Source: Ectocarpus siliculosus
Taxonomy: Eukaryota; Sar; Phaeophyceae; Ectocarpales; Ectocarpaceae
NCBI GenBank assembly: GCA_000310025.1
Contig: FN649740.1
Span: 3,559,645-3,584,291, forward strand
DNA length: 24,647 bases
Reading direction: 5' to 3'
Shown piece after piece: positions 1 through 24,647 of this stretch. Each line of letters opens with the position of its first letter. Position 1 is the stretch's first letter. The notes beneath the pieces were generated by a model. It was not told the origin of the DNA, made no database searches, and worked only from the letters and a program-made list of their open reading frames with translations. A program made the translations under genes and the position numbers.

Positions 1-4
1 AATT

Positions 5-236
5 CTCCCATTATGTCGCAGTACTCGTACCGCTGCCCCCACGCTGAGTGCGGCCGGTGGATAACCAAGATTAATCCGCGCGACATTGCAACGGCGAAGT
101 GTTTTGTTTGTGACGTCAACTTTCAAAGTGATGCCATAGTCGCAAAGTGTATTGCGACTGAATCGAAAGACAATAAACGGGCCGTGGTTAGGTACGCCCA
201 TTTGGACCCGGACGTATGCTGTGACTCTTACGTACC
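5..236 (+). repeat. Left arm of a ~230-bp inverted repeat
   Basis: This stretch matches the reverse complement of 1326-1555 almost base for base; I see only scattered substitutions, a 4-bp insertion and a 1-bp deletion in the other arm. The arms are separated by about 1.09 kb. The repeat is a duplicated coding exon, not a transposon end, since it carries the zinc-finger-like reading frame. Confidence 0.85.
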
Positions 237-314
237 ATCCAAATTCACGCAGTGCAAGTCCTGCGAAGGTAGATCTAAATTAGAACACTTCGACACCTTA
301 AGCGGGTCTCGCGA

Positions 315-360
315 CCCCGACAGACAGGTCTGTCGCCCTTGGACAGACAGGTCTGTCGCC
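315..360. repeat. 23-bp tandem duplication with internal hairpin
   Basis: Two identical consecutive copies of a unit that begins GACAGACAGGTCTGTC and ends GCCCTTG. Each unit contains a 7-bp inverted repeat (GACAGAC/GTCTGTC) around an AG spacer. The duplication changes the reading frame of the Cys-rich gene fragment that contains it. Confidence 0.9.
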
Positions 361-536
361 CTTGCTTTGTCAAGCGGCGGACTGTCTTCATGGAATCCGT
401 TCGGGCCCAGATGCACGACAAGTCTTCGTCTTCTTCAACATGTGCTTCCCCGGTCAAACGATACAACCCCAACTCCGGCGGCGGGAGTTCCTCTTCCGCC
501 TCTAACGAACGTCCTCCCAAGAAATCACGTCACTAA

Positions 537-1325
537 ACGGTAAGCTAACCATTGTTGATTTTGTGCATAGGGAAGGGGGGGGTGGGCGGTTCCATATCAT
601 CAGACCATCTGCCACTTATCTATGCTGCTCTTCATTTCAATCAATTCATCAAGCATTCCCGTTATTAGTGCAGCAATCCGCCGTGAACGCCTCGTCTACT
701 ATGTACTTCTAAGGCTTCTCGACCTTCTCAAAAGCAGACGATCAGGCTACGGGTGGGTGTGCCATAAAGAACGCAGAGGGTAGGATGAGTCACGTCCCTA
801 ACATTGTTACCACCGCCATCCATCAGTCACATTCACCTTGCTTGCTTGGTCACCCTTCCTTTTACTCCTCCTTTACTCCTCCTTCCTCCACCTCCACCAC
901 CTCCTCCTCCACGCTTCTTGCCATCAGGTGCATCTCGACTCCACACGACGTCGTGACTTCACATTTTTCTTCGTCGACATGCTATTGTCACGCCAGCTTC
1001 GTCCAAGACATCATCGTTCTACACTTCATGTTTTTTCTTTTTTTCTTTAGGAATATACTTCGTTTGAGGGTAGTTGCGTTTTTTTTTTTGTATATATATT
1101 GCGTCCCCAAAACTGGACTATAGTAAGTAAATATATACTGCCTCTGACCGGGAAAGACCGGGAATGAATGAATATAGGCAACGTTCGGATGATGACGGGT
1201 CGTATTCCGCTCGATGATTTTTTTCATCGTCAGTATGTACGTGTCTATGAATGTATGTACGTACGTACGTAGTGTGTCATCACGTCGGTTGCCAACACAT
1301 AGGACAGCATATCCATGCCCCTGGC
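537..1325. other. Non-coding spacer between the inverted arms; pyrimidine tract and ACGT microsatellite
   Basis: I see no supported gene. About 858-915 on the plus strand is almost pure pyrimidine (CTC/TCC repeats), followed by T-rich runs at 1030-1050 and 1078-1090 and an AT-rich TATATATAT segment. A short ACGT microsatellite (GTACGTACGTACG) lies at about 1255-1272. The open frames here are low-complexity translations of these tracts. Confidence 0.6.
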
Positions 1326-3336: not shown

Positions 3337-3668
3337 AAGCAGCCCAAGGTGATGTCGACACTTGGAAATAAATCTGTGATTGGAGGAATATAGGTAGGAA
3401 AGCGGTCGTTGGACGAATAACGCGATGGCGATGGATGACGACAAAGGGTTGGATATCTGGCCGTTTCAAGATATGCATGAAGCAGCCCAACCAAGTTGAT
3501 GTCGACACTTGAAAATAAATCTCTGATTGGAGGAATATAGGTAGGAAAGCGGTAGGTAGTTGGACGAATAACGCGATGGATGGCGATGGATGACGACAGG
3601 GTTGGATATTTGCACGTTCAGATATATATGCATGAAGCAGGCCGAGGTCATGTCGACACTCGAAAAAT
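3337..3668. repeat. Tandem repeat, two full units of ~143 and ~155 bp plus a partial third
   Basis: Units start with AAGCAG at 3337, 3480 and 3635. Each carries the landmark GTCGACACT (3354, 3501, 3652), followed in the first two by AATAAATCT and GATTGGAGGAATATAG. The length difference comes from small internal insertions (for example an extra GTAG near 3555 and an extra GATG near 3578). The minus-strand open frames across this region translate the same repeat and are not evidence of a gene. Confidence 0.9.
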
Positions 3669-4056
3669 GTAAGATTGTCACCACGCAGCATAACATGTAA
3701 ACACGGTGGAAGCGGTTTTAACTGCAGGCGGCATAGAGAGCAAGAGCGGGAAAGCATCATGGTAAAATCCATACGTGAATATGTGAGGTGTGAGGTCGGT
3801 TACGAGGGTCATTGCACGTTTGGGTTGGGACACAAGACGTTTCAAGGGGAGTTGTGCTATAGCGCGGTATTGGCCGTACAATTATTTTGCAGAAGTCGGC
3901 AGGTGGGCATGCATGCAAAGTGAGCAACAATCGAAACAAAACCCCGCGGAAATTTCAACAATGGACGTATTCGCTCGTGTTGCTGTCGTGACGTAAATAC
4001 TGGACAGTTCGAGCTGGAATCATCATCGAGCGCTTTGATTGATATTTTCCACCGGA
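3669..4056. other. Upstream region of the RING array
   Basis: No gene is supported. It should contain the promoter of the first RING module. A TGACGTAA motif (CRE/bZIP-like) lies at about 3989-3996, some 60 bp before the ATG at 4057. I see no clear TATA box. The promoter role is inferred from position only. Confidence 0.3.
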
Positions 4057-4713
4057 ATGGAGGACAATTTATTGTCGGACGGGCAGGGAATCCCGCATAC
4101 TTGTGGGCTCTGCTTCCAGGACTTGCCTGGCGAAGGCGCAACGACCCTGCCTTGTGGACGTACGCCGCACGCGTTTCATACCACATGTGTGGAACGCGAG
4201 ATCAGGTACGCCCGACGTGGCGAAGGGTCTACCGTCACATTGGAATGCCCTTGTTGTGCAGGTACGGTAATCATCGGTGAGGTACCGGGGTTCCAGGAGG
4301 TCAGGATAGCTCCCGCACCGCGGGAGGGACTACGAGAGTACCTGCAGAGGCGTCGGCGACATCGGCTGCCTCTATTCAGCGTATTGGACGAGCTCGGAGC
4401 GGATGTTCTAGGCCTGTCGTATCCTCCCTACTTTCCTCCAGGAAACTGGAGCGCTGTTGTAGAGTATATAAGGGCGTTGGATGGGTGCACCGCACGGGAC
4501 GACGTATCTATTACCGTGCTTGATCGAGACGCTGTATTCCGGATGGAGCTGGAAGGTTGGGCTGAAGAGGTGCACCGGAACGGTAGGGATACACACGTGC
4601 CAGCGCTTCCGCTACCCGCGAGTCAGGGTGTAACACTTGAGGCGATACCGCGCTCACCGATCCCAACATCGTTGCGCCAGGTACGCGTTGGGGCTGTGTG
4701 CGTGAGACGATGA
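4057..4713 (+). CDS. RING module A: RING-H2 finger plus one copy of the unknown domain
   Basis: The ATG at 4057 sits in a good eukaryotic context (ACCGGAATGG). Ligands are visible at C16, C19, C33, H38, H41, C44, C64 and C67, a C3H2C3 pattern; the third and fourth ligands are unusually far apart (CGRTPHAFH instead of CxH). After the RING comes a linker shared with module B (VIIGEV..GF and PAPR), then the unknown domain from about residue 92 to 190, with LREYL, a PPYFPP core, W and WAEEVHR. The frame is open to a TGA at 4711-4713. A splice donor CAG|GTACGC at 4680/4681, at a codon boundary, suggests that the last 11 codons are intronic and that translation continues in another exon. Likely role: ubiquitin E3 ligase of unknown substrate. 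Confidence 0.75.
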   Translation: MEDNLLSDGQGIPHTCGLCFQDLPGEGATTLPCGRTPHAFHTTCVEREIRYARRGEGSTVTLECPCCAGTVIIGEVPGFQEVRIAPAPREGLREYLQRRRRHRLPLFSVLDELGADVLGLSYPPYFPPGNWSAVVEYIRALDGCTARDDVSITVLDRDAVFRMELEGWAEEVHRNGRDTHVPALPLPASQGVTLEAIPRSPIPTSLRQVRVGAVCVRR

Positions 4714-4857
4714 CGGCGGTATGATGAACTAATTTGAAGTGATGGACTATACGAATATCGACTTCTCAGCTGCAGGGACACAGTCTTGTGTGCACGAAAC
4801 ACATTCAGAATTATTTCATGAGGCTGTAACATGTGTGCCGACTGCGTGTTCGTGCAG

Positions 4858-4987
4858 GCTGAGGACGATCAAAACGAAGAAGACGAGTGTGAAGGCTACG
4901 GCGTGTCGTCTCCGTGCGTTTTGCACGACATTGAGGTTCGGCGGGAGGTCATCAGATGCGTATATGCAGGACGACGACAATATGCAG
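4858..4987 (+). CDS. Possible small linker exon between modules A and B
   Basis: It is preceded by an acceptor (GTTCGTGCAG) and followed by a donor-like CAG|GTGTAA. Read in phase 0 from module A it is open and acidic (AEDDQNEEDECEG). Its end, EVRREVIRC...GRRQ, resembles the end of the 43-codon linker exon at 6495-6623 (EVQRAAGRA...GNRQ). Its length is 130 bases, one too many for phase 0, so either a 1-base insertion has occurred, the donor differs, or it is a terminal exon that runs to the TGA near 5028. Confidence 0.35.
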
Positions 4988-5207
4988 GTGTAAAATATAA
5001 AATTTTTTGTCGCATATGTCGGGCGTGATCGGTGTGGTTGTAGTGTATATGGACTTAGTATTTGCGGTGAAAACATTCGCTTCAGAGTAGCAGCGCGATA
5101 TGTGTTCATGGTCTGCACAATCTTGCAGTAGGAATAAAATCTTAGCGCGCTTGCATTTTTTCCGCTCTTGGCACGTATTTTGTTCAACGAATGACGACCT
5201 TGTACAG

Positions 5208-6269
5208 GCGGGCGTCGTCAGAGAAAACGGGCAGACCTTCGATGACGTTGATCGCGTGAACGACGCCGGGAGGGACGATTTGTGCGTAATATGTCTGGAT
5301 CCTTTGGCGACGCGAAGGCGGTCGTCATTGCGGTGCAGGCGTGTTTTTCACAAGGACTGCATTGAAAGGTTGTGCAGGCAAAACCGAAGACGCAAGGATG
5401 ATCCGCCAGGGGCATGGATATGCTGTCCTATGTGTCGGCAACCGACGATCATCGGAGAAATTAGAGGGTTCGAAAGTGTGATCGTGTGGCCAGTGCCGAG
5501 GCGTATAGTTTCGGGGCAGAGCTACGCTTCGATTGACCTCTACGCTTTTTTGGAGAGAAGGAATGATCGGAGGACGAGGGCTACGCACGTGTTGGTGACA
5601 TTGGCTGAAGACATCCTCGGATTCCTGATGCCGCCGTTCAGCGTGCCTCCCGGGTGGTCAGAGTACGTAGAGCACGTGCGACGTCTTCCTCGTCGTGAGG
5701 TCGATGACACCGTCTGGCTGCCGATTCTCTGTAGGGAGGAAGGAGCCCGAGATGTTCTGGTTGCATGGGGTAGGGAGGTGCATCGTCCTGAAAGGGGGGG
5801 ACGGTATCCGCCATTTCCATGGCCGCTCCAGCCGACCTCAAGACCACGCCCGCGTAGAATGTTGAGGCAGACCGAGACGATGGAGGAGTACGTAAACAGG
5901 CGGGCACGGGAAGGACACAACCACTATGATGTATTAGTTGATCTTCGTGCAGACGTCTTGCGCGAGCGAAGGCCTCCGTACGTTCCTCCGCAGGGATGGA
6001 GCGGATGCGTCAACGCGCATAGGGTTGTTTCCGAAAACGTACGAAGCAGCCTGTACGAGGAGGTCCAATTCACGGTTTTGCGTGTATGCGGTAGGTATGA
6101 AGGTATCAGAGAATGGGCATCAGCGGTGAGATTCTGGGCCCGAAGGGTGGAGCAGGGAGAAGAAGTCGGTGGTTTTCCTGTATTCCCGTCCGCCGACAAC
6201 GGGAACGTGTCACCACATGTATCGGAGGTACAGCGATCCGCTGTATGTGCTAATATCGGGCAACCGCTG
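5208..6269 (+). CDS. RING module B: RING-like finger plus two tandem copies of the unknown domain
   Basis: The frame is open from an ATG at 5100, but a strong acceptor (CTTGTACAG) at 5207 in front of a codon boundary suggests that this is an internal exon. The RING reads CVIC...CRRVFHKDC...CPMC. The fourth metal-ligand position, normally His or Cys, is Arg, so zinc binding may be impaired; one C-to-T or G-to-A change would restore a ligand. The conserved linker IIGEI-RGF follows, then two copies of the unknown domain: the first with PPFSVPPGW, WGREVHR and PPFPWPLQ, the second from MEEYVNRR with PPYVPPQGW and WARRVEQG. The donor CTG|GTAAGT at 6269/6270 is an excellent match and falls in phase 0. 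Without splicing the frame would stop at 6293. Confidence 0.75.
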
Positions 6270-6494
6270 GTAAGTTTTATGAAGATGTACTAGTTGAACA
6301 GCGTAATGATAATTTCGGAAGGGCAATGCGAATGTCATCGTGTTGAAAGGCCGCGCTGTACGTGATAGGGCAAGTAGACACAAATAATAAATTTCATAAC
6401 ATTTCAGCCAGCGATGTGATGTCATGAAATTTCTAACGATTTGCTCATGTAATTGCGATCGCCTATCGTGTGCATTGTGAAAAACAACTATCAG

Positions 6495-6623
6495 GAACGA
6501 AGATACGAGGAGGAGCGAGACGTAGTCGTCGCTGTTGTAGGCGAGGTTGCAACAGCTGGGGCTTCGGCCGAGGTCCAGAGAGCCGCCGGTCGTGCGTTGG
6601 AAAGAGGCAATCGGCAATTGCAA
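6495..6623 (+). CDS. Small linker exon, 43 codons
   Basis: An acceptor (CAACTATCAG) ends at 6494 and a donor CAA|GTAAGT begins at 6624. The exon is exactly 129 bases, in phase 0 at both ends, so it fits between modules B and C without changing frame. The peptide is Glu/Arg/Ala/Val-rich and probably helical, with no known domain. Its donor and following bases (GTAAGTTTT) look like those of module B, as if the exons were duplicated together. Splicing is inferred from sequence only. Confidence 0.5.
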
Positions 6624-6886
6624 GTAAGTTTTGCAATGTTTGGAAAGCGCACTCGGTATGATAGATGGGTAGTTTTGAGCAGCGCAACTTATAATCGATA
6701 TGGCGGCGTCGGAGAGGCAAGCACAGTTTTGGCCGCGCTGCATGTGGCATGGCAAGAACACCCGATCTGCATTTTCTTATCATCTTACATTCTTACGCGA
6801 TTCCGGCAATTGTTCTCACTATCCGGTTATCGCAGCTTTTCATCTAACATTCCTATGCCCGCCCAAAAAATTGAAAACTAAAATAG

Positions 6887-7375
6887 GATTCGACCGTTGG
6901 CCGCCGGGGTAACGGTGCTGCCTTCGAGGATAGCGCAAGGGAATGTTTGGAGGACTATGTGCGGCGGGTAACGCGGGCGGGGTCTGCCCCTAACACCATC
7001 CAGCACCTCGTGGATGACATCATCCATAATGCGTCGCCTCCGTTCATCGCTGGTGCGTTCTGGGACGATTTCGTCGCTACCCGGCGGAGGCATGTAAACG
7101 CACGACGGCAGTACCAGCGGTTCCCGTTTGGCGATGAACCAGAAGATGCTGCGCTCGGCGATTTCCGCGACCGGATCGAGCATTGGGCGGAGGTGCACGA
7201 ACGTCGATCCCGCCGTGATTGCAGGTCAATGCTTCTTCCGACGTTCCCATGGTCGTTGTCCGTCGAAAGCCCTGGTATCTGGGACTGCACGAGACATGTT
7301 GAACGCACGAACGCCGTCAGCGTTGCAGACTTTGCTCGCCCGAACGACGACGGCCCCTTTCCGCCTCCCTGCACG
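6887..7375 (+). CDS. Module C: exon with one copy of the unknown domain, no RING
   Basis: The frame opens directly after a TAG that also supplies the AG of an acceptor (CTAAAATAG) and runs 163 codons in phase 0 to a donor ACG|GTGAGT at 7375/7376. It has no RING. The unknown domain shows LEDYVRR, SPPF...W (NASPPFIAGAFWDDFV), EHWAEVHERR and PTFPWSL. A less conserved tail follows. Because it lacks a RING and an obvious start codon, it makes sense as the second or third domain of a longer spliced protein starting in module B. Confidence 0.6.
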
Positions 7376-7473
7376 GTGAGTGTTCTTACGGTGTTTTATA
7401 GTGTACAAACAAGCGGGTTGTATGTTGCCGAACATCTGTGTTTATATAATTACTCGCTCTGTCCTAGTTGTGT

Positions 7474-7533
7474 ACAGGAGCGTTTGCATTCATGGTATTT
7501 CGCGTTTTTCGCAGTGTTACCTGGAAGTGCACG
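7474..7533 (-). repeat. 60-bp copy of a Helitron USP exon, in the RING array
   Basis: This segment is 59/60 identical to 11655-11714 and in the same orientation. In the Helitron that segment is the start of the last exon, read on the minus strand, including its splice acceptor. Here it lies between modules C and D, probably in an intron, and is read antisense to the array. It is debris of the same transposon family. Confidence 0.85.
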
Positions 7534-7575
7534 CACGCCCCCACACGGTGGGCCGCCGTCGAAGCCACGTCTCGG

Positions 7576-8482
7576 GCTGATTGTATCTTGTGCCATCCGA
7601 AAGAATTATCGGGCAACGTAACTGTGCCAACTGGGGACGACGCGTTTCTCTTCTTGCACCGTCTCGCAGGACCGGGACGCGCGTTTACAACAGGTGTTGT
7701 ACCTGTTAGACCATCAGTCGCACCTGACGTTCCCGCCGAGTATCTCTTGCCAATACTTTATCTGCAGTCGCCTGCACAGGAGCAGACCCGCTACATTGGT
7801 TTGCGGCCATGCGTTTCACGCGCATTGTTTAGAAGACCTGATAAGGAACTCCCGCCATGCAGCATACGCCAGGAGTTTTCATGTCGTTGCGGCAGTGATG
7901 TGCCCATACTGCGGTGAACGGTGTGCAATTCGAGACACATCGTTCGGTAGGGTTGAATGCCGACCTCTTCCTCGTTGCTCCGGCAATCGGGACGCCGTCG
8001 CCGGCGTCAGACCGTTGGAGTCGCTTGAGGAGTTCGCAGGCCGCGTTGAGAACGGCGGGTCCGCTGTTCTTGCAGCACTTCAAGCTGACGTTGGTGAAAT
8101 CGCATTCCCACCGTTTGTGCCCGGGCCTCGGTGGGCGACACTCGTGTCCAGCAACCGGGGTCGCTCCGCCATGTTATATCGAGCGCGGCGCGAGTCGCGC
8201 GACGAGGACATGCCGGCGGCGAGACGCGGCGACGTAAGCACGGACGTGACTGAGTGGGCGCGAAGAGTTGACGGTGCAGGACCAGGAGGTATTTCGATCC
8301 CGTTTCCCTGGGGTGCTTCTTCCGTGGGGAACGACATTAATGACATCGGAACGACATCTTGTGGTGTGACCGGAACGACATCTTCTGGTGAGATCGGAAC
8401 GACATCTTCTGGAAGTCGTGATGCGCACGCGAGACGAGGCAGTGACGAGCACACGGTGATAATTTACGTCGAATCACTGTAG
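7576..8482 (+). CDS. RING module D: RING-H2 plus one copy of the unknown domain and a Thr/Ser-rich tail
   Basis: The clear frame runs from an acceptor at 7693 (TTTACAACAG|GTG, phase 0) to a TAG at 8480-8482. The RING core reads CGHAFHAHC ... CPYC, a good RING-H2. The first Cys pair is uncertain: CQYFIC in this frame has four residues between Cys, while a well-formed pair (DCILC) sits at 7579-7593 in another frame with a donor-like GTAACT at 7618, so the 5' part may be spliced. The unknown domain follows with LEEFAGRV, PPFVPG..W, EWARRVDG and IPFPWGA. The tail holds three 8-residue repeats (GTTSSGEI type). Probably an E3-like protein of the same family as A and B. Confidence 0.6.
8345..8416 (+). 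repeat. 24-bp coding tandem repeat, three units
   Basis: Three 24-bp units share the core CGGAACGACATCTT and code for Thr/Ser/Gly-rich octapeptides at the end of module D. They start near 8345, 8369 and 8393. The length is a multiple of three, so the frame is kept. One unit contains a donor-like CTG|GTGAGA. Confidence 0.8.
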
Positions 8483-8673
8483 AGGTTCAGTTCCACGTTG
8501 GGCACGCCCCGATCGAGAACCAGCGCGACCGCCCAGTCGACGTCATCGTCGGCCGGCCTAACGTTTCTTATGTTATCAGTAGTTATAACGAGGGTGGTTG
8601 GGTGTTTAATATACGGAGCTCATCGACACCAACCCGTTGTAACCGTCCACGTTTGTTCACATTCTCGCCCCAG
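8483..8673. other. Spacer between modules D and E
   Basis: This stretch of 191 bases follows the stop of module D. It ends in an acceptor (CTCGCCCCAG) at 8673 in phase with the RING of module E. It holds either an intron or the 3' end of one gene plus the start of another; no clear start codon for E is visible. Confidence 0.35.
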
Positions 8674-9381
8674 GAGATCGAAGCTGCCACGCAACGCGAT
8701 ATGTTCCTGGCAGAGGTTCGTCCGCCCGAGCTTTCGCGCGTCTACAGCAACCGTTGTAGACAGGTCATGGATGACCATCACACTTGCGGCATCTGCCTCC
8801 GCAGGCGTGGTGCGTATGAACACGCCCGCACGACCATGCCAGCATGCGGTTGCGTGTTCCACTCTTCCTGCGTTCGGTCTCTTGCGAGGAGATGCAGGTA
8901 TCGAGTCGCGCCATCATCCGTCGCTATTTTATGCTTGTGCGGCACGCACAACGTAATGGTGGGACATTCCCGCCGCGGCGACGAGGGTTGCAGAGCCACT
9001 CCCTAAGTGTTTGTCGTACCAGCCTGAGGCCGGGTTCGACTCAGACAGGATCGGCCCTCTCGAGGGGCTTGAGGCGTATGTGCAACGTCAAACGCCGGTG
9101 CACGGTATCCTCCATTCGTGCCGGGGATCTCGTGGGACGCGTGGGTGCAGTACTTCCGGCTGCGGCCAGAATCTGAAAGGAACACGCGCGGAGACGATGC
9201 GCGTCCTCTGCGCGATTGGTCAATGTTGGCTAACGAGGCGAGTCTTTCCGCAAGGTCACTATTTCCCGCCTTGCCCTCACCCCCTGTCTGCGTGGAGGAA
9301 AGCAACGGCGCTCATGGTTTGGACTCGTACAGCCTGGTCGGCCTGGTCCGTCGCCGCGACTCGTATTTTGTTCCGTCGTGA
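8674..9381 (+). pseudogene. RING module E, first part: RING-like finger and a broken copy of the unknown domain
   Basis: From the acceptor at 8673 the frame codes for a RING-like finger: CGIC ... CGCVFHSSC ... CLCG. The last pair is CxC instead of CxxC, which suggests loss of a residue. The frame meets a TAA at 9004-9006. The conserved domain start (LEGLEAYVQRQ) then appears in the +1 frame at about 9060-9095, and the core (YPPFVPGISWDAWV) is back in the original frame from about 9105, followed by a TGA at 9379-9381. This is the pattern of a decayed module with two compensating indels and a stop, or of introns that I cannot place. Confidence 0.5.
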
Positions 9382-10239
9382 TATGAGTTCGTCGAGTGGA
9401 ACGTGCTGGAACAGGGCGGACATGACTTCGAGTGGCTATGGAGCGCATTGTTCCTAGAAGTAAAGGAGAGTCCGTACTTACCGTACTTCGTCCGGCCCCG
9501 TACGTGGGACGCGTGGGTTTCAACTTATAGGTCTGCATTAGGGGCCGAGGCGCGTCGTATCCTCGTCGACGTTCAGTGCGACGTTGGATATGTCGCGATC
9601 GAGATCCAGCGCGACTTAAGCGCCCGTCGGCCCGTCTCCGGGGATATTCTCGCCGCATGGGCGCGCGACGCGGCAGAAGCTGTGGTGAATGAACTATTCC
9701 CGCCCGAATTACCCGCCCCGGTTGACACCGCCGTGAACGACGCAGCAGTCGAGGCTAGAGGTCGGCATGGACAAGATACGGACGTTCCGCGTACTCCGAC
9801 CGGAAACGTATCGGAAACACGCGCGGCACCGGCCGAGGTTCGCGGCGGTGGAGTAACATGGGCGCCTTACATCGATAGAAACGCACCACGGACGCGTACG
9901 TACTCGTGGCTGTTCAGCCCGATATTGATGGACGCCATCGGGTACGACCCTCCTCCGGCGTTTGAGAGGCCGGACGGTTGGTGGCGTGTAGTCCATGCTA
10001 TCCAAGCTCGCATCGTTGGGCAAAACGTAACGGTGGAAAATGGATACGTGCCGGCTGAAGAACAAGTGAGGGTATTGGACATGTTGCCCGTAACAGCAGC
10101 AAGACTTCAACAGTACGCGGAGCGGGAATCGCGGCGATACCTTAGCCGCGACATCAATCGGCCGTTGCCGCTACCTTTCCCGACGCCGGGCACCTTCGTT
10201 GAAGATGCCCAGTTTTCTTCGGATCTGGGGAACGACTAA
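9382..10239 (+). CDS. Module E, second part: two more copies of the unknown domain
   Basis: The frame is open from the codon after the TGA at 9379-9381 to a TAA at 10237-10239. Copy one has EFVEWNVL, LPYFVRPRTWDAWV and AAWARDAAE. After a low-complexity linker, copy two has WLFSPILMDAIG, PPPAFERPDGWWRVV, RLQQYAERES and PLPLPFPTPG. It is in the same frame as the core of the preceding copy, so the single TGA at 9379 separates what was probably one coding exon. It has no RING of its own. No start codon is evident in the first 100 bases, so it is either an exon of a longer transcript or a pseudogene remnant with a long open frame. Confidence 0.55.
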   Translation, partial: YEFVEWNVLEQGGHDFEWLWSALFLEVKESPYLPYFVRPRTWDAWVSTYRSALGAEARRILVDVQCDVGYVAIEIQRDLSARRPVSGDILAAWARDAAEAVVNELFPPELPAPVDTAVNDAAVEARGRHGQDTDVPRTPTGNVSETRAAPAEVRGGGVTWAPYIDRNAPRTRTYSWLFSPILMDAIGYDPPPAFERPDGWWRVVHAIQARIVGQNVTVENGYVPAEEQVRVLDMLPVTAARLQQYAERESRRYLSRDINRPLPLPFPTPGTFVEDAQFSSDLGND

Positions 10240-10804
10240 CGACCTATCGTTCAAGCTTTACTTGAGTGTGTTCTAGTGTGTACGTCTGTGTAGTGATAGA
10301 TGACGCTGGTTGTGGCGGATTGATTTGACGTCGAGAGATCTGGCATAGAAAATTGTCGACTAGACGGTTGAAGGCAGTGTTATCGTACTTTCTTGCGGAT
10401 CGTAAACGCCTCGTTCGAACTGGGCAACAACGGCGTACCAAAGTCAGCCTATCGCACACGGCACGCCGCGCGCAACGTTACGTACTGTAACAGCGACTCG
10501 TCGCAGAGCCTTTGCACGGTTGAACTGGGCAGCAAACATGACTGCACCGCAATGACGACCGCCTTGAACGTAATAATGCACACTTCGTCTTCCCCGGCGT
10601 TGTCCACACAATTAACGTCATCGAGGGTGCATTTCAACACGGCTGGCTGCTGTGTGCGTGTTACGTGGCAGCTTGCGTGGGTCTGTTCCACTCTGAAAAA
10701 ACGTGCAGAGATCCAGCACAAAACGACCATTGACAATACTCTCCTACAGATATACGCATCGCTAGCTAGCGCACGAGTGCAAGTTATTGACTTGCCCTGA
10801 ATAG
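10240..10804. other. Spacer between the RING array and the Helitron
   Basis: I see no supported gene. At 10434-10464 it holds a 31-bp near-identical copy (one mismatch) of 18532-18562, the CAVCDRL-coding start of the Helitron's second exon. Minus-strand open frames of 71 and 132 codons overlap here but resemble nothing I know. Confidence 0.5.
10434..10464 (-). repeat. 31-bp copy of the second Helitron exon
   Basis: The sequence matches 18532-18562 with one mismatch (CGTACCA, then A/T, then AGTCAGCCTATCGCACACGG). Similarity does not extend on either side. In the Helitron this is coding (minus strand, CAVCDRLTMVR). It lies about 8 kb from the source. Confidence 0.8.
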
Positions 10805-11815: not shown

Positions 11816-11991
11816 CACGAGGGAGCGGATCATTGCGAACCTATGTAACTATGTCAATACGCACAGACTGGCCCGTTTTTCGGAGTTCAGTCTATATGAT
11901 CGATTGCTTGTGTTCGCCTAGACTATGCCTTTTACAAATGGTTAGCGCACGTACGTGTGTAAAAATAATATATTTGTATTCCTAGACATAC

Positions 11992-12657
11992 CGATACATC
12001 ATGCGGCAGAGGACCCTCCCACATGACGGACTTGACCGTCTGCAGAGCGCTCACAAAACAGTCTGCTCCAGGTGTAAGCCCTTGCAAGGCTGACTCCTCC
12101 ACATCTTCGGTCATCGCCAATGATATCGCAAGGAGACTGTTAAAAAAACAGTTGTTGCCGGAGTTCGTGGCGAGCCAAAGACCACTAGCTGAACCCGAGA
12201 CGTTTACAGAAGCAGTTGTAGATCCTGACGATACTGTAGCAGAAGAACCATTTGATCGTGATAATGTAGAACCTGCTGAGCCAGATGGTGCGGTAGAACT
12301 AATGACGCAATTCCCAACTGCGCCAGCATCAGCTGTAGATGCCGATAAGCCTGCAGGTGAATTTTCCGTACTACCACCAATCGACAAACCGAGGAACGAC
12401 GCCCTGTGTTTTTGCGACTGTTCCTCAATCCACGCCATGAGTGTAGCTGGGTCGTTTGCAGGCTTGGTCTGAAGTTGATGCAGAGCAACGTCGAAGAGCA
12501 ATCGAATAGCTTCGAGACTGGTCGCCCTGGAGATAGCGACGTAAATGAGGGCACTGTCGTCGACCCCTCTCCCTCCTTCTTTACGATGAGGTTGACGCAA
12601 ATCAAGAAGACAGTCGTCAAGGCTTTCACCTTGCGCACGATGCACAGAAGAAATATT
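11992..12657 (-). CDS. Helitron helicase motif VI and USP Cys box
   Basis: The frame starts with SSVHRAQGESLDDCLLDL, equal to motif V/VI of PIF1-like helicases ('iTvhkaQG.tld'), and goes on with ALIYVAISRATSLEAIRLL, the 'yVAlSR' motif. A Ser/Gly/Thr-rich linker leads to WLATNSGNNCFFNSLLAI, which matches the Cys box of ubiquitin-specific peptidases ('GN.C..Ns.lq'); the nucleophile candidate is the Cys codon at 12148-12150. The exon ends at donor TATCG|GTATGT (11992/11991), in phase 0. The last 34 bases are copied at 11782-11815 in the following intron. Function: helicase end plus a ubiquitin-type peptidase fused to the transposase. Confidence 0.75.
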
Positions 12658-12662
12658 CCCCC

Positions 12663-15583
12663 GAGCTGAAAGGTAACTGCCGTCTCTTTATGTAGTAATC
12701 CTTTTTCGATGAACTATAGCGAGACGGAACAGTTACCCTGAAAGTTCGCGTATGCGACTTGATGGCGACAACGCCTGGGTCCAGACCTGGCAGATGCAAT
12801 CCCTTCTTGTAAGCGTCTTCGATATAGACCGAAACAAACAGAGGCAGCCGCCTCAAGTAAATGTTTGTGGCATCTTCAGGAATGTCAGGTTCTTTAGAAT
12901 CAAGAACAATTATCTTGGTGATTACAGAGGAATTGTTACAAACGCCAGCGCCTACGTATTGAGTCTGCAGCCGAAGAACGACATGCATCCCAATCGCAAC
13001 CGAAGTTTCGCGAGGTAGGTCCATAGTCTTGTTGTCTTCAAGTTGGTTGACGTAACCTCTTAAACCTGCCGGCCATTCTTTTCCAGTGTAAAGTCTCGAA
13101 TCACAAATTCGCAACTTGTCGAGAGCCCTTGACACATAGTGACAAACGTCGTTCCGTGCACAAGCCGAACGCGCGAGAGGAACAGCCAAGGCGCACCTGA
13201 TCTCGTTTCTGAGGACGATCATTGTCGACAAATGGCAGTCGTTTCCGCTGATATTGCCAGCGCCGACCGTAGCTGAATTCAATATGACCCTGTCTTCGCT
13301 TGTGCATGAACCCACTCGAAGTCTCTCCACAATACCTCGCAGTGGTTCCGTAAAACGCTTGCTTTGAACAAGCATGACCCACGCGGTCATGCTTAAAAAA
13401 AGCTGTTGTCCGCCGAAAGCTGATGAAGAAGACGATGCTAAAACTGCAGCACCGATTTATTTGCTGAAACCTGAAGCCAAGCCTCTGCTTGCTACCGGCT
13501 GTAGTTGACTGAAATCGCCAAGAGCAACGACATCGAGGCCACCGAAAGGCACGCTGGCATCTGCGCCGAGAGATGCAACGGTCGCGCCATGTAATGCCGC
13601 AAGCATTTTGGCTGAGACCATTGATATCTCTTCTATGATGAGAACCGTCACATCTCTCCATAGTGCCTTTTTCTTGGCAGATAATCTCCGTGCTGGCGTT
13701 CGGCTTTTCTCATCTGGAACACTGGCGATGCTGTGGATCGTCGTCCCGCTTAGAGTCGTAGCTTGTTTTCCTTGGAATGTGCAAACCAGCGCTCTCTCAC
13801 GGCCACCACAACGGAGAACACATGGACAAGCAATTAAAGTAATTGCACGTGCCACATGAGACTTCCCGGTACCTGCCCCTCCACCGATGTACAACCTGCA
13901 TGGTGTTGCCATCTCTCCGCGCTGCCATTTCATGAAGGAGTCCGCGAACGTATAATATGCCAGCCGCTGCTCCTCGTTGAGCATGTAATGCTCCGCTATT
14001 TGCGTCACAACAGGTGGATACCTTGAAGCAAGTAGACCAACATCGGATTGGCGAACACGGTTGTTTATTTCTTCGCTCTCTACAACCGCGTTGTCTCCTG
14101 GAGCAGCATTGACAGCTTGAAGCGACTGAATATATGCATTTGAGGTCATAGCTGACGAAAGATCTCCATTACAAATGCTCTCACCGATGGTGTTGTCTTC
14201 ACCGTCATTATCATCGCAGAGTCCGGGAGACAGAACGGATGTGCTGAATTTGCTGAGCAAGGGCATCGAATTATTTACCAACGTCTTCGCTGCCAGGCTA
14301 TTCTCGGAACGAACAGCACCTGGCGTGGCACTTGATCGGAGCGTTGATGTTCGACGAACAGCACCTGGCGTGGCGCTTGATCGGACCTTTGATGATCGAC
14401 GACCAGCGTGGGTTGCACCATCTTCTCCTTCGCCATCAACTATGCTGAACTGCATGCACTTTCGCAAGGCTTCATCGGCGTGGTCGTTCGCATGCTGCTC
14501 TGACTTACTTAACAAAGTAGAGATTGTCATCATAATATCCATCATCATTGTCGTCACTGTCTCCGAAGTCACTTCCAGACCATCTTCGCCAGGAGTGAAT
14601 ATTCCAGCGTGTAGAGAATCCCGAGTATTATCAGCAGCTCTCGCTCTCCTTGCGGCATTCGCAGCTCTCTTTTCTACTTGCAATGTATTGATGTTTTCCC
14701 TTAGAGGTTGGGAACGGGAATCCCATGCATCAGCAGGTACATTTCTGTAAGCCTCATGCCATGATTTACACCCTTGCGGATATAGACCACTCGCTTCGAA
14801 GAATGGCTTAAACAACACCAGAAGTAGGCGCCCGAAGTTCTCTGGATTCGCTTCTTCCAAAGGCGGCTCGCACATGATGTCCACCACCTTAGGTTGTCTT
14901 CGCAAATAGTGCGAATACCCAGCTCTGTAATCTCCGAAGAAGTCATATCTAGTTTGGGCTGTTTCACGCCCAATCGTGGGGGCAAAGTCGTTTGCTGTAG
15001 GCACGTTTTCGGTAGCACTGATGTCCTCATGTGGTCGCTTGATGCCGTTTGTTTTAGAGATCGCAACAAGGCGCGTGTACATGAAATAGCACATGCTGTA
15101 GAAACGATGACCGGCGTCTTCGGGTGCACATCGATGGATATAGTCTTGCGGAGCGCGAGGAGTACAACACAGACGACCTTCAACCGCCGTCAGCAACACA
15201 CCGCCCTCCTCGTCGTCGCTGTCGTCAGAATGTGCAGAGCCTCCTTCTTCCAATTCAGATGGAAGCGAGTCCTTGATCCAGCCATACACAGGTGTCAGCC
15301 TGCACAGTACAGGTTTGTGGGACAAGATTGTATCCGACCACCCCATTAATTTGCACACGGCGGCTGCACCGCCTAATTCTGTGCCAGATAGCAGACGGCA
15401 GAGAGAAGCCCTCACGATTCTTCGCACGCGTTCGTCTTTGGGCTCAGAACGGTCTTCTTTGTCAATACGAGTAACCACTTCGGCAGGCAAAGGAACAATC
15501 GAATTCACCGTTCGATTGGATTTCGTCGTGTACATGAGGATGTAAAAAACGAGGCCTCGAGCGTCACCTTTTCCTTGGATAAC
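12663..15583 (-). CDS. Helitron Rep two-Tyr motif and PIF1-type helicase (one in-frame stop)
   Basis: After acceptor TTTTCGCAG the frame starts with GDARGLVFYILMYTTKSNR. FYILMYTTK at about 15527-15547 holds the two Tyr (YxxxY) that attack DNA in Helitron transposases, so both catalytic Tyr are kept. A long variable stretch includes a duplicated 15-residue unit (RSSATPGAVR). Helicase motif I is YIGGGAGTGKSHVA (near 13880), motif II is VLIIEEISMVS with Glu in place of the usual first Asp of DExx, and motif III is GDFSQLQPV. TAA at 13457-13459 interrupts the frame, which continues in the same register with AWVMLVQSKRF..PLRGIVERLRVG, a normal next block. A +1 shift in the G5 run at 12658-12662 precedes motif VI. 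Confidence 0.9.
14311..14400 (-). repeat. 45-bp coding tandem duplication in the Helitron
   Basis: Two units, each containing GAACAGCACCTGGCGTGGC (plus strand, starting 14311 and 14356), code on the minus strand for a repeated 15-residue unit around RSSATPGAVR. The frame is preserved. It lies in the variable region between the Rep Tyr motif and the helicase. Confidence 0.85.
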
Positions 15584-15711
15584 CTGCGAAAACACGTGTC
15601 AATAACACAGACAACGGTATTCAACATGATGACGAAAAATAGGTAAATTATAACAACACGCATGCCATTCACAAATAGATGAAAAAACTGTAATGTCAAT
15701 CGTCTCCGCAC

Positions 15712-16452
15712 CTTGATGTCCATGTTTGATCGTATGGCCTGCTGAACAACCCAATTATAACTGTTGATGTGCGTGGATCCGCGGCGCACCCGTATGATGA
15801 AATCGTCGTCGTCGTATTCAAAAGGAGCATTGTCTTCAACTGCCTTGGCGCGGGCGGCGGAAGCTCTTTGAATTTCTTCTTGCAAACGTAAAGCAGCCGT
15901 TTGATCGTTAGGCCCGTCTACCTCTACCGTCACGCCGTCTATCTCCAGTGTACCGTCGGCATAAACGACCGCCTTGCCGTTCTTCACACTTCCTCTTTCG
16001 AGAATAGGCTTTCCGTCACGGCCGAACCCACATCGACACTCGGCCCCAGGGAGCGGTAGTCCATCCAATCATTTTTTGGCATACTTCGTGCACGTGTGTG
16101 TACATCCATGCAACCCGCCACCCATGCTATTGAAGAGGCGTCTTCAGCAATGCAAGAAAGGCACGCAGGGTTTTCTCCGAATAAACGCTGGATGGTAATT
16201 GCAGGAATAGGAGGGCAGATTGAAACCTTGCGCTTGTCTTTCCTAGCCTCTCTTGTGTGAAGTGGTTCCGGCCATTCTTCTGCCGAAACGTGGTCGTCGT
16301 CGCAGCTCTAGTTCTGATGAGCGGCACTCTCGTCAAACGGTGACGCGTTGGGTACCACAACTTTGTTGTACACTGGCTCATATGCGTTGAGCAGGCCGAA
16401 CTCTACCTCTTCGAGAGACATGACCTGGTTGTATATTATTCTTCCGATGTAG
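15712..16452 (-). CDS. Helitron Rep domain, middle part (two in-frame stops)
   Basis: After acceptor GTTTAACAG one base completes an Asn codon and the frame reads YIGRIIYNQVMSLEEVEF, a Rep block. It meets TAG at 16308-16310. A different frame then carries GLHGCTHTCTKY, the 'HtCtk.C' zinc-like block, meets TGA at 16069-16071 next to an A6 run and continues as LDGLPLPGAECRCGFGRDG. The exon then has an Ala/Glu-rich part and HINSYNWVVQQAIRSNMDIK, matching 'yNp.l....r.N.Dik' of Helitrons. It ends at donor AAG|GTGCGG (15712/15711). Between 16308 and about 16120 the right frame is not certain, and an intron is possible. Confidence 0.7.
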
Positions 16453-16528
16453 CTGTTAAACAGAAACGTGTAGTAACGTCAAACATATTGACATATGTAA
16501 ATAGACCAACAAAACAAGCCATAGACAT

Positions 16529-16583
16529 AAAACAAAAAACAACGATCAATCCTCAATGCATTGTCTCTCCGATTGAGCAAAAT
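16529..16583 (-). repeat. 55-bp copy of a Helitron exon segment inside the next intron
   Basis: It is identical at 54/55 positions to 17287-17341, which codes for the LLNRRDNAWRIDRC block. The copy lies in the intron 16453-16653, about 760 bp further along the gene, in the same orientation. It is an exon fragment re-copied into an intron. Confidence 0.9.
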
Positions 16584-16653
16584 ATAAAACTTTGTGTTGA
16601 ACAACGATTCCGGACGGTACGAAAAATGGATATAAGATACGTACTGTACTCAC

Positions 16654-17840
16654 TTCGCTAGTTCGGCATGTTTCTTCAGGTTGTGCCCAATGTCGTTCCG
16701 CAGCTGTTCCCGACTCGTGAAGCCGTGCACCCATACCATCAGATGACCGTGAAGCATAAGACGATGCTGCTCTTCGGTCATTCCGATGTGTGCTTTGATG
16801 TTGCCTAGTGCTCCACCATCGCCATCGTTTGCTCCAAACCTCAGAATGTACTTTAACACCGCCTCCATTGTTTCGTGGGAAAATGTGGCCGAAGCCACGG
16901 GGTCGTTAACGATTATGTCCAATCGTTTTCTGTACTCTGGCATTTGTTGATGGCATGTCGACGATAGGTCGTTGTCATGACCTCCGTAGTGCATGGCGAA
17001 AGGGCTGTTAACATCTGAAGGATTCACCGTCATCCAGAAAAAAGGCAATCCGAACTGTCGCGTCCCCTGAAACGGCCTGCATCTTCCGAAGGAGAGCTTT
17101 GATCTCGGGTCTGTTGTTTAAAACCGCGCTGGTTTTTTTCCCAGACTTGGAGTTCATCTGCCATGCCATGTAGATCCTCTTTAGTGATAGAAGCTATTGC
17201 GTTCGCATCTGCAGAATTAGGTCGCACCGACAGCTTGAATCGCACATTCGCAATCGCTTCATCTCTGAAACGAACTGCGGCTGCGCAAAACAAAAAACAA
17301 CGATCAATCCTCCATGCATTGTCTCTCCGATTGAGCAAAATCTGGATCCATCTGTTGAATGATACCGGTCTTCTTCGCGTAGGACACAAAGGCCCGCCAC
17401 AGCCTTCCGGGAACGCGTGCATGAAGCCTTCTACCCAGGCCGAATTATTATTATAATCGTCTAGGATTTCACCGTGTGGCACAACGAGGGCGTTGCTGGT
17501 ACCACCAGGCGGAGGTTGACCTCTACGCAACGCCGCCTCCGCATCAAGCTCGCTGCCTAACGTTTTCATCGCATCCGGAAGTCTTTCAGCCGAGGTTGCG
17601 GTGTCCTCACCAGGATCAACCACCGCGTAGTTTTGCAAAACACACGCCTTGGCGTCTTCCACGTCACGTCTAACCTGCTCATCGTCACCCTCGTCGCTGC
17701 TGGAACTTGTTGAAGAAGTGTCGTCGCTCAGTTTGACTTTCTCAGCGCCGATTTCGTTGCTACCTCGAATGTAGGAAGAAGACACGCTTGCGCTCACATT
17801 CAATGGATCATTCGATGTTAGAATCGAATCCAACAACACT
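16654..17840 (-). CDS. Helitron Rep domain, first part with the HUH motif (two homopolymer frameshifts)
   Basis: A Ser/Asp-rich stretch leads to the block typical of this family: DDYNNNSAWVEGFMHAFPEG, then GGPL, then a helical part (NRWIQILLNRRDNAWRIDRC). The frame shifts by +1 in an A7 run (17133-17139) and again in a T6 run (17038-17043). After that comes FFWMTVNPSDVNSPFA, equal to the 'lfFTlNPaDi.sP' block of Helitron_like_N, and LMLHGHLMVWVHG at about 16735-16770, the HUH motif (HGH) that binds the catalytic metal in rolling-circle nucleases. The exon ends at donor GCGAA|GTGAGT (16654/16653). It codes for the ssDNA nicking and joining part. It cannot be translated in one frame as given. 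Confidence 0.85.
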
Positions 17841-18570
17841 TTTTGGGATAGATCCATCCTCGCTGTACGAATCGAGGTTCTCTTCACTGAGAGGAAGAGA
17901 TTTCGCCACGGGAAAACCGACGACAAGTTTATCTTCCTTATCGAGCATGTAATCGATTATGGCCCTAATCATTGATTTGCGGGCACCCAATAGGCGGCCA
18001 AGATCGGAGGGTTTGGGTTTTTTCTTCCCCGCTAGCACCACCGTGATCATATCCAGCAGACCAGTCGCCGCCAAAGGTAGCTCGTTCGTGACAGAGCTGG
18101 AGTTGTTTGCGTAAAACACAGATGTTCCTCGCATAGATCTCTTAGCCGTTCCAGGAATGTTGTTCACACGCCTTGATTCCAATGCTACAACGTGACCCTT
18201 TGTTCGAATTGGGTACGCTGCGGCGCGCTCGACGAACGTTGCCTTTTGCAGCTCATCGGGTAGGGTACCGACCCAAAACCCGTTCGCCAATGCTGCATCA
18301 GGTAATTTGTTCTCCGCCAACGACCGGTAGCACTCGTCGCATACATGTATCTTGCATGGTTCCTCTGACTCGATACCGTACTTACTTAGAACGAGGTTGT
18401 CTAGGTCCCGCGCCGTGTCGCCTGCATAGCCGCGAAAAGTTGCCATTACCCTGTCCTGCTTGCGAAGGGCTTCGTCCGCCCTTAAAAGTTCTTTGCTGGG
18501 AATCTCACTTGCTGATAATACGTGATGACGTCGTACCATAGTCAGCCTATCGCACACGGCACAGGGAGAC
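17841..18570 (-). CDS. Helitron exon 2: DUF6570-like zinc region
   Basis: The exon starts with CAVC, then has CDECYRSL..NKLPDAALANG and a segment FWVGTLPDELQKATFVERA. This is the typical layout of the DUF6570 region found upstream of Helitron Rep domains: Cys pairs, then 'P..al.Ng...g..P.eL..l...E'. Metal binding, perhaps to hold the transposon end, is inferred. The frame continues through an acidic, Ser-rich segment and shifts by +1 in the A5 run at 17840-17844. With four A the next frame would join smoothly, so I read this as a 1-base insertion, not a true end. The 31-bp segment at 18532-18562 also occurs at 10434-10464. Confidence 0.75.
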
Positions 18571-18727
18571 CTGTTGATAACAAATTTATGTAATTTTTTG
18601 TATGCGCCCGATCTCAACGAGTGTATGTGTTAATAAATTAGAAATGGCACGTTCTAGCCGCCCGCCCTATTTGAGGCCGGCCAGTTTCTTTCTACATAGC
18701 TAGTTCAGTCGAACTGCTGACACTCAC

Positions 18728-22822: not shown

Positions 22823-23227
22823 CTATATCATTGTGAGGGGACAATAGCGTTCAAGTGGAGACTAGATGCGATGTAGAATCGACAAGGTTGCCAACTGGCC
22901 AAAGAGAAGAAGTATTGCTTCGAAACACGCGAAAAACGGAGACTGACCGCGTGGTGAAAGCGATTCTCGGTCTCCCGATGCGATGACTCTATTTTTGCCG
23001 TTCTTCACATCCTTATTAGTTTCCTGTCTCGCCGGGTAGTCGCAATGTTTTTGTGAGTATTACCGAGAGATTGTTATGGCACCACCCACTTCTGTTTTCT
23101 TGGGAAACCTTTATGTACCTTATGGCTTTGGCTGGCCAGTTTTCCCCATAACGAAACACGCACTCATTTGTACTGAAGAACTTGACAGAACCTGTGCAGC
23201 ACGTCATCCGTTCGCTTGGGTTCTTAC

Positions 23228-23329
23228 CGGGCGGCATATGCGCATCCATCCGATCACCTCAGCTGCCGTAAAGCTATAGTGCTTCATTATGTAGCACCCG
23301 ATGCACGTCCCAGTTCGGCCAAGTCCGGC
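23228..23329 (-). CDS. CDC14: CDC14 phosphatase, exon with the second half of the P-loop
   Basis: This 34-codon exon starts [18 protein letters not shown] and ends GWMRICRP. With the end of the preceding exon it forms HCKAGLGR, the HCxxGxxR phosphatase signature: the Cys is the nucleophile, the Arg binds phosphate. The intron splits the P-loop right after HCK. Borders: acceptor TTTGTGCAAG, donor CCG|GTAAGA, phase 0 at both ends. CDC14 removes phosphate from Ser-Pro sites of CDK substrates and works in mitotic exit, cytokinesis or cilia depending on lineage (family knowledge). Confidence 0.95.
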
Positions 23330-23679
23330 CTTGCACAAACGATCGCGCGGTGGGGTAAGGGGGGCGGTTGAGAGGAGAGTTTCCCCGGAGTTATAGCACG
23401 CCGAAGGTAGAAGGGCATCTGGCTGCTTGCGACCACCGTTGCTGCCGAGCACGAACAGAAGTCTGCCACCAACTGACGAGCAGACACTTCCACGGCTTGT
23501 GTGAGGACAATCTTGGGTATTACCTACCTCGCACCCTTTGGCGCTCGACTCCCCTCAGCCATCTATTTCGCCACGGCCAGAGGACGAATGATACTTTGTG
23601 CACGTGACTCCTCGTGAATCGAGTGCCGCACGCGTTCGCACAGGGGTTCGCAAATAGAAACACACTGCGTATGTGTCAC

Positions 23680-23844
23680 CTTGCAGTGTACCGCCACCGC
23701 CCCCGGAGTAGCTTCGCAGGCGGCGATGAACTGACGAATTACGCTAGGCGGCGGCACGCTGCCGTCCAAGAAGTACGCCTCCAGGTGATCGATCCCGGCG
23801 TCCAAAAACAAGCCCTCGTCGTAGTACTTCTTGTTCAACCTCAC
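23680..23844 (-). CDS. CDC14: CDC14 phosphatase, exon with the WPD-loop-equivalent region and the catalytic Cys
   Basis: The 55-codon exon starts after acceptor CTATACTTAG with VRLNKKYYDEGLFLDAGIDH, followed by YFLDGSVPP, matching 'vVRLN...Y....f.daG..h..l.f.DGs.P' of CDC14. The Asp in DGS is the likely general acid. It ends GAVAVHCK before donor AAG|GTGACA; the Cys is the catalytic nucleophile. The preceding exon should end with the partner of 'NVTTVVRLN' but is not found in 23845-24647, so the N-terminal half of the protein must lie beyond the window or behind a long intron. The introns of 350 and 405 bp are normal for this locus. Confidence 0.95.
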
Positions 23845-24504
23845 CTAAGTATAGAAAGAGGAAATTTCCGACAGATCTCTAGAATAAATCCGCTTGGCCT
23901 GAGCCCACTTTTTCTTTTTTCGACGAAGGGTAGTAATCAGAGAGCGGGGTGCGTTGGAAGACGACAAGGTGGGGCGTTCTCGTTCAGCGCATGGACAAAT
24001 GTGCCCACCGGTAGTGTTTCCTGTGAAGATGACGGCTCATTTGTTCGAAAAAAATAGGAAGGTTTGTTCGTCGAAGCAGATAGAATAAACTGGTGTTTAT
24101 TTTGTAACAGTCGAATTAGAATTTGGCTTCATTTTCTACCGGAAACCCAGGGTCACGGTGTTTGGAATTATTAGTCTATAGTTGGGGGTGTCATTCCGTG
24201 ATCGAGTCCACGCAGGGGCTGTAGCAAAGTCGGGTAACGTGTGACAGCTACAGAGCGCGTGAAGCAACGGAAGGACAGCAGCAGCCGCCTAACGCAGTAG
24301 CGGCGGCAGTCTCCATATAAAGGTGTGTACTCGTGTCCAACATCCATCGTGTCGGCCGTGTTTCTATTCGCGTCCCGCTACTCTTGTGACCTCACCGCTG
24401 CGTGCATTTAGCACGAGGGGGGAGGGTGCAGTAAGATAAGCGGCGGCAAGCCACCGCAGTCTCGCTCGCCGCGCCGCTCAGATAGGTCCCTTCCCAAACA
24501 TGGG
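23845..24504. other. Non-coding region, probably a CDC14 intron
   Basis: Since the exon at 23844 needs an upstream partner and none is seen on the minus strand here, this stretch is most likely intron of CDC14. No other gene is supported. It has T-rich bits and a GCAGCAG/GGCGGC-rich segment near 24280-24310. Confidence 0.45.
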
Positions 24505-24595
24505 ATGCGGTTCATCCCAACCGAGACGTACTCTCGCTGAAGAAAAAAAAAATGCGGTTCGTCCCAACCGAGACGTACTCTCTCTGAAGAAAAAA
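24505..24595. repeat. 47-bp tandem duplication
   Basis: Two units, starting at 24505 and 24552, share ATGCGGTTC, TCCCAACCGAGACGTACTCT and CTGAAGAAAAAA with only two substitutions and a difference in A-run length. No gene covers it. Confidence 0.9.
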
Positions 24596-24647
24596 TTCAA
24601 CGGCAAAAAGAAAGAGCGGGGCCTGTTGTATGGTCGCACGCTGACTT

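What the first reader, a model, noticed from the sequence alone, without database searches (positions are those of the whole stretch)
4057..10239. Expanded RING-finger array with an unrecognised ~95-residue repeat domain
Four RING or RING-like fingers on one strand are followed by eight copies of one domain that I cannot assign. All copies share an LE.Y/F-V start, PP(F/Y)-x4-5-W-x3-V, an E/A-W-A/G-x2-V helix and a P-x-FPWPL-like end. A linker IIGE-x2-GF also recurs after the RINGs of modules A and B. Copies differ strongly, so the array is old or fast evolving. Such local expansions of RING E3 ligases with a variable partner domain are typical of lineage-specific recognition systems (inference). 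This is the best candidate in the window for an undescribed family.
Basis: partly seen in the sequence, partly recalled or inferred. Interest (0 to 1): 0.82.

Follow-up and report, generated by a model that had tools for sequence, protein, structure and literature searches.

The report
Brown-algal RING gene with unknown repeat
A probable brown alga carries what looks like one gene joining several RING fingers (typical of enzymes that tag proteins with ubiquitin) to repeats of a domain that the libraries searched here do not recognise, with decayed pieces of related copies elsewhere in its genome; it is probably a real but partly damaged gene.

Summary
Eight copies of one ~100-residue domain lie at 4321-10194; profiles built from the other seven recover each one. 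Four RING-type fingers precede them, only finger B passing Pfam's cut-off. The repeat matched nothing significant in Pfam, PHROGs, PDB sequences or Foldseek. An 8-row AlphaFold model is helical, pLDDT 74.

The host is probably a brown alga. The array reads best as one gene of about six exons with mostly phase-0 introns, not a row of separate ligases. Decayed pieces, mostly of exons C, D and E, lie on eight other contigs, and a RING A piece on a ninth. Some keep splice sites, so they are DNA-level copies. Differences between window and copies favour third codon positions in 7 of 9 copies tested; copy-to-copy differences do not in 12 of 12 pairs. So the gene was under purifying selection in the past. 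The window's last exon is damaged: two frame changes, one in-frame stop.

Best reading: a multi-RING ubiquitin ligase with an undescribed partner domain, the least damaged member found of a decaying family. A recognition role is untested.

The parts
4057..4680 (+). Exon A (from the first candidate ATG to donor CAG|GTACGC): RING A 4099-4257, repeat R1 4321-4629
5208..6269 (+). Exon B: RING B 5280-5438 (over the Pfam cut-off), repeats R2 5523-5837 and R3 5871-6203; donor CTG|GTAAGT. The acceptor at 5208 is phase 0 but only third by score
6495..6623 (+). Possible small exon Bx, 43 codons, phase 0 at both ends; no homology support, splice sites not scored
6887..7375 (+). Exon C: repeat R4 6935-7267, no RING; donor ACG|GTGAGT present in three of three copies aligned there; the acceptor before 6887 was picked by eye and not scored
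7670..8455 (+). Exon D: RING D 7760-7912, repeat R5 8012-8329; the AG of the acceptor is present in two of two copies aligned there; the end at 8455 is uncertain
8674..9003 (+). Start of exon E: RING E 8782-8889, open to a TAA at 9004-9006; acceptor CAG|GAG present in two of three copies aligned there
8957..9381 (+). Damaged part of exon E: frame change between RING E and the start of R6, a second frame change inside R6 (9097-9288) whose second helix is missing, TGA at 9379-9381
9382..10239 (+). Open 285-codon stretch with repeats R7 9382-9723 and R8 9895-10194; TAA at 10237-10239
8467..8530 (+). 64-nt fragment in the D/E intron, 81-86% identical to the R7 exons of the C6 and C18 copies (76% over 97 nt to a C11 copy): stray piece of the same family
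10314..10628 (-). Antisense family fragment: 10534-10628 resembles the first half of RING B (about 69% to 5235-5346); 10314-10387 is 84-88% identical to sequence lying directly beside the RING A pieces on contig C24

Best explanation
One multi-exon gene, probably of a brown alga, encodes a large protein built of modules: a RING-type finger followed by one or more copies of an undescribed, mostly helical domain of about 100 residues. Most likely it is, or recently was, an E3 ubiquitin ligase: the RINGs would recruit charged E2 enzymes, and the variable repeats would bind substrates or hold the complex together. Shown here: the modules, the repeat family, splice signals at module edges, past purifying selection over exons C, D and E up to R7, DNA-level copies elsewhere, and damage in the window's own last exon. 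Inferred: a single transcript, ligase activity and the role of the repeats. With the lesions in exon E, the likely present product ends soon after RING E: about 1,140 residues if exons A, B, Bx, C, D and E were joined as listed (sum of exon lengths); no such protein was built.
For: All eight repeats recovered by leave-one-out profiles. RING matches A, B, D, E. Longest + strand frame 400 codons against a maximum of 305 in 300 Markov surrogates of 3901-10300, and no stops inside the listed exons. Best-scoring donors after R1, R3 and R4 and best acceptors before RING D and RING E are all phase 0. Ten of 11 junctions picked by eye, not blind to frame, are phase 0. C donor and D and E acceptors occur in copies elsewhere. 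Third-position excess, all segments counted: 7 of 9 copies compared with the window at p 0.008 to 5e-8; 0 of 12 copy-to-copy pairs at p below 0.13. dN/dS, five copies, R8 left out: window pairs 0.25-0.44, copy pairs 0.50-0.87.
Against: No transcript or proteomic data. Exon E has two frame changes and a stop. Three of four RINGs score under the Pfam cut-off; B, D and E have irregular ligands (sequence). After R5 the best donor is phase 1 (8387), and before RING B two phase-2 acceptors outscore the phase-0 one. Constraint is uneven: R8 shows none (21/13/20 of 64 against L019, p 0.23; 12/12/13 of 48 against L020, p 0.96), L023 gives p 0.08, and C and D taken alone are mostly not significant (p 0.017-0.18 against L017, L018 and L024; D against L022 and L025 p 0.008 and 0.004). 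Constraint on exons A and B was not measured. The excess may reflect selection before the damage, not now. The RING+R2 model was poor, pLDDT 52.6.
Confidence: 0.48

Rival explanations
1. The whole locus is a pseudogene: the least decayed relic of a family that has died in this genome.
For: Damage in exon E; relatives in 9 of 11 loci fetched (a tenth, L026, doubtful), several with internal stops or frame breaks; decayed RING A pieces on C24; weak RINGs; no constraint seen on R8.
Against: Exons A, B, C and D are open with plausible splice sites; third-position excess toward the window copy.
Confidence: 0.29
2. Several separate small RING genes lie in tandem, each a RING with one or two repeats, and the introns proposed here are intergenic gaps.
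For: Module A has its own ATG (4057) and stop (frame ends 4713), and modules A, B and D are each open on their own; module-sized copies occur elsewhere.
Against: Strong donors at the ends of A, B and C and acceptors at D and E, agreeing in phase; exon C has no RING; no in-frame ATG lies between the start of the frame at 7622 and RING D.
Confidence: 0.15
3. A repeat-receptor system built by exon shuffling, comparable to the brown-algal LRR-ROCO and NB-TPR genes, in which phase-matched exon cassettes are duplicated, scattered and re-used to vary binding.
For: Phase-0 exons carrying repeat modules; dispersed exon copies and stray, partly inverted exon fragments; brown-algal ROCO LRR exons are reported as 72 bp, phase 2 and shuffled (PMC11378527, passages seen).
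Against: Copies elsewhere look decayed, not re-used; no diversifying selection shown (dN/dS below 1 in all 13 pairs); exons are long, hold whole modules, and are phase 0, not 2.
Confidence: 0.08

Closest known systems
RING-type (zf-RING_2, PF13639) E3 ubiquitin ligases
   Same: Cys/His fingers of the RING kind; B over the curated cut-off
   Different: Four fingers apparently in one gene, three below the cut-off with irregular ligands in B, D and E; the partner domain matches no family searched
Brown-algal LRR-ROCO and NB-TPR genes with shuffled repeat exons (PMC11378527, passages only)
   Same: Repeats carried on phase-matched exons, decayed relatives, brown algal host (host inferred here)
   Different: No Pfam family, so no LRR, TPR, ROC-COR or NB-ARC, matched the eight repeats; exons of 129-1062 nt and phase 0 instead of 72 bp and phase 2; a RING instead of a GTPase or NB core
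Plant RING proteins with repeats such as XB3/XBAT (ankyrin plus RING)
   Same: RING joined to a repeat that would bind partners; the XB3/XBAT RING model is a weak hit to B (16.5 bits, cut-off 50)
   Different: The repeat is not ankyrin by Pfam; here each RING precedes its repeat and the unit is reiterated. XB3 layout is recalled

Membership tests
RING-type E3 ligase | RING domain above the curated Pfam cut-off | tested here: met
   Finger B 29.4 bits against 27.3; A, D and E below it
RING-type E3 ligase | Full set of eight zinc ligands with regular spacing | tested here: inconclusive
   Read by eye translations with a recalled motif: A complete with a long C-x4-H gap, B lacks the fourth, D and E irregular
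RING-type E3 ligase | Ubiquitin transfer with an E2 | not testable with these tools
   Needs an in vitro assay
Exon-shuffled brown-algal receptor (ROCO / NB-TPR) | LRR or TPR repeats | tested here: not met
   No Pfam family at E up to 10 for 8 of 8 repeats (HMMER filters drop most hits above about 0.1)
Exon-shuffled brown-algal receptor (ROCO / NB-TPR) | Repeats on symmetric exons of the reported kind (72 bp, phase 2 in ROCO) | tested here: not met
   Proposed exons are 129-1062 nt and phase 0
Transposable-element cargo | Copies share element ends or a high-copy flank | tested here: inconclusive
   A ~500-bp unit beside the copies gives 7 matches on 4 contigs only, all at loci of this family (that search skips very common words); shared termini were not searched for

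The most novel reading that the evidence does not exclude
A third brown-algal repertoire made from phase-matched exon cassettes: a RING ligase core joined to an undescribed helical recognition domain, with cassettes duplicated, inverted and scattered through the genome and used to target variable partners for ubiquitination.
Probability: 0.08. Interest if true: 0.75.

Novelty: new variant of a known kind. Interest (0 to 1): 0.42.

Why it matters
If expressed, it gives brown algae a ubiquitin ligase type with four fingers and a repeat domain not in the libraries searched here, and it shows how an exon-module gene decays and scatters in this lineage. The repeat profile would be a new family to look for in other stramenopiles.

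Tried and rejected
Viral origin: three scans of IMG/VR (module alignment A2, the R7-R8 stretch, exon A) and one tblastn of exon B against phage records found no relative. The scans rely on short peptide patterns, so remote relatives would be missed. Known domain: Pfam and PHROGs per member, PDB by profile, Foldseek on PDB and BFVD, and VIA-align on 14 chains gave nothing significant; the weak PDB hits (best E 0.18) were taken as chance. No Rfam or tRNA match in the window.

False or doubtful relatives: L029-L032 (4 of 6 loci) match exon D only through stretches that are 92-98% alike among themselves and hold long frames on the other strand; taken as an unrelated repeat. L027 is a tandem repeat. 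L026 (C2) holds two short inverted R2-like pieces, genome E 0.004 and 0.05. Retrocopies: rejected because splice sites and intron gaps persist in copies. The C26 frame of 325 codons with one diverged repeat, searched on its own, gave eight further partial matches and no full-length relative. The first selection count left out R8 and five copies (L020, L022, L023, L025, L026); one search adds R8 and four of them, and R8 and L020 show no excess. Best-explanation odds were lowered by 0.02 for that.

Papers: four searches listed 15 of 1,562, 0 of 0, 12 of 104 and 7 of 7 papers; no listed title or abstract start describes a RING plus unknown-repeat family in brown algae. Only passages of PMC11378527 and PMC12477816 were read.
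Full report
What the window is. It is G000:C15:3559645-3584291 of an unnamed assembly of 189 Mb in 492 contigs. The EsV-1-7 cysteine repeat (PF19114) gives 150 matches out of 150 scored candidates, 880 having passed the first look, and none in 14 control genomes. That this repeat is typical of brown algae is recalled; together with genome size it points to an Ectocarpus-like brown alga, an inference.

The repeats are real. Eight stretches share motifs at low identity (19-33% to the first row). Each was left out in turn, a profile was built from the other seven and run against 744 window frames and 14,880 shuffled frames. Every left-out copy was found, the weakest domain at E 0.0023, while the best decoy in the eight searches had E 0.097. 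No library recognised the repeat: Pfam 0 of 8 members, PHROGs two single weak hits (best E 0.18), PDB by profile best E 0.18. An AlphaFold model of R2 with the eight copies as alignment has mean pLDDT 74, pTM 0.67 and four helices of ten or more residues. The best Foldseek E-values were 6.1 (PDB) and 3.8 (BFVD), and VIA-align gave no Z of 2 or more among 14 chains. With eight rows the model is modest, so a new fold is not claimed.

The fingers. RING A, B, D and E match zf-RING_2 at 21.8, 29.4, 24.6 and 18.6 bits; only B passes 27.3. Exon C has a repeat but no RING match.

Gene structure. Scoring donors and acceptors with recalled generic weights, the best donors after R1, R3 and R4 (4680, 6269, 7375) and the best acceptors before RING D and RING E (7670, 8674) are all phase 0. 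Less clear: the best donor after R5 is 8387 (phase 1; 8455, phase 0, is second); 5208 (phase 0) is third among acceptors before RING B, after two of phase 2; the acceptor before 6887 fell outside the range scored, and the sites of Bx were not scored. Of 11 junctions picked by eye, not blind to frame, 10 are phase 0; the eleventh, 8896, lies inside exon E and was dropped. The C donor is present in three of three copies aligned there, the AG of the D acceptor in two of two, and the E acceptor in two of three (L021 lacks it). This favours one gene with symmetric module exons. No RNA evidence was available.

Copies elsewhere. Searches with exon B, R7-R8, the 7000-10240 DNA, exon D, exon A and exon C found relatives on C6, C11, C18, C21, C25, C26, C88 and C489, those on C21 and C25 weak. 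Of the 11 loci fetched gave clear tblastn matches, L026 a doubtful one and L027 none. Of the six fetched, L028 and L033 carry decayed exon-D pieces and four were false. These copies cover parts of C, D and E. Exon A finds in addition an inverted pair of decayed RING A pieces on C24 (E 5e-8 and 2e-6), inside a 0.6-kb inverted duplication and directly beside sequence 84-88% identical to window 10314-10387. Window 10534-10628 reads, antisense, like the first half of RING B. Stops or frame breaks occur in many but not all pieces: the C6 R7 piece and a diverged C26 frame of 325 codons are open. Searches in this genome score only the best candidates, so copies may have been missed.

Selection. On codon columns set by the window frames, differences by codon position between window and L018 are 130, 116 and 195 of 524 (p 5e-8). 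With every segment counted, 7 of 9 copies give p of 0.008 or less against the window (L017, L018, L019, L021, L022, L024, L025); L023 gives 0.08 and L020 (R8 only) 0.96. None of 12 copy-to-copy pairs falls below 0.13. Taken by segment, the excess is clearest in exon E; in C and D against the closest copies it is mostly not significant, and in R8 it is absent. In one search (five copies, R8 left out) dN/dS is 0.25-0.44 for the window pairs and 0.50-0.87 for the eight copy pairs. Pairs share sequences and copy pairs have fewer differences, so power is lower there. The reading is that the lineage leading to the window gene was constrained and that the copies decayed largely freely after they split.

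Damage in the window. RING E is read in frame 0, with a stop at 9004; the start of R6 in frame 1; the rest of R6 in frame 0. R6 lacks a helix that the C11 copy L019 has, and a TGA stands at 9379 before R7. In L019 the end of RING E and the following stretch lie in one frame (3606-3752 and 3756 onward), which suggests that the window's first frame change is its own. Assembly error is possible.

How it probably works. RINGs usually bring an E2 to a substrate (established knowledge). Several RING-repeat modules in one chain would make a multivalent ligase whose repeats contact substrates or partners; this is inference. The immune or recognition idea rests on analogy with exon-shuffled ROCO and NB-TPR genes (PMC11378527, passages), from which this gene differs in repeat, phase and exon length.

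Noticed in passing
window 11932-18629, minus strand: A Helitron-type element by eye: replication-initiator-like and PIF1-helicase-like frames followed by an OTU-like stretch (labels recalled, not scanned).
   Followed up: no
window 4-232 and 1325-1556, with 1283-1326: An inverted duplication (97% over 233 nt) whose inner junction holds a 44-nt antisense copy of RING B (98%). The C3 relative (L034) matches window 4-1286 in one direction and 1325-1700 only inverted, and shows no match to the 44 nt. Looks like a templated insert at a rearrangement breakpoint.
   Followed up: partly
window 7470-7533/11651-11714, 16529-16601/17287-17359, 10430-10464/18528-18562: Other short dispersed near-identical fragments (35-73 nt, 89-97%) within the window; the 35-nt one matches six places in the genome, the window's two included.
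   Followed up: partly
L035:1857-2448 (G000:C24): A 0.6-kb inverted duplication (80%) holding two decayed RING A pieces, each beside sequence like window 10314-10387; with window 10314-10628 it suggests a once larger, rearranged RING module.
   Followed up: partly
window 23204-23844, minus strand: Exons that look like a CDC14-type phosphatase by eye (not scanned).
   Followed up: no
window 24053-24647: 98.8% identical to L018:1018-1670 on C18, about 0.7 kb upstream of where the alignment to exon C begins there; probably a recent repeat insertion.
   Followed up: no
L027 (G000:C2:8841500-8846500): A dense, diverged tandem repeat array of several kilobases.
   Followed up: no
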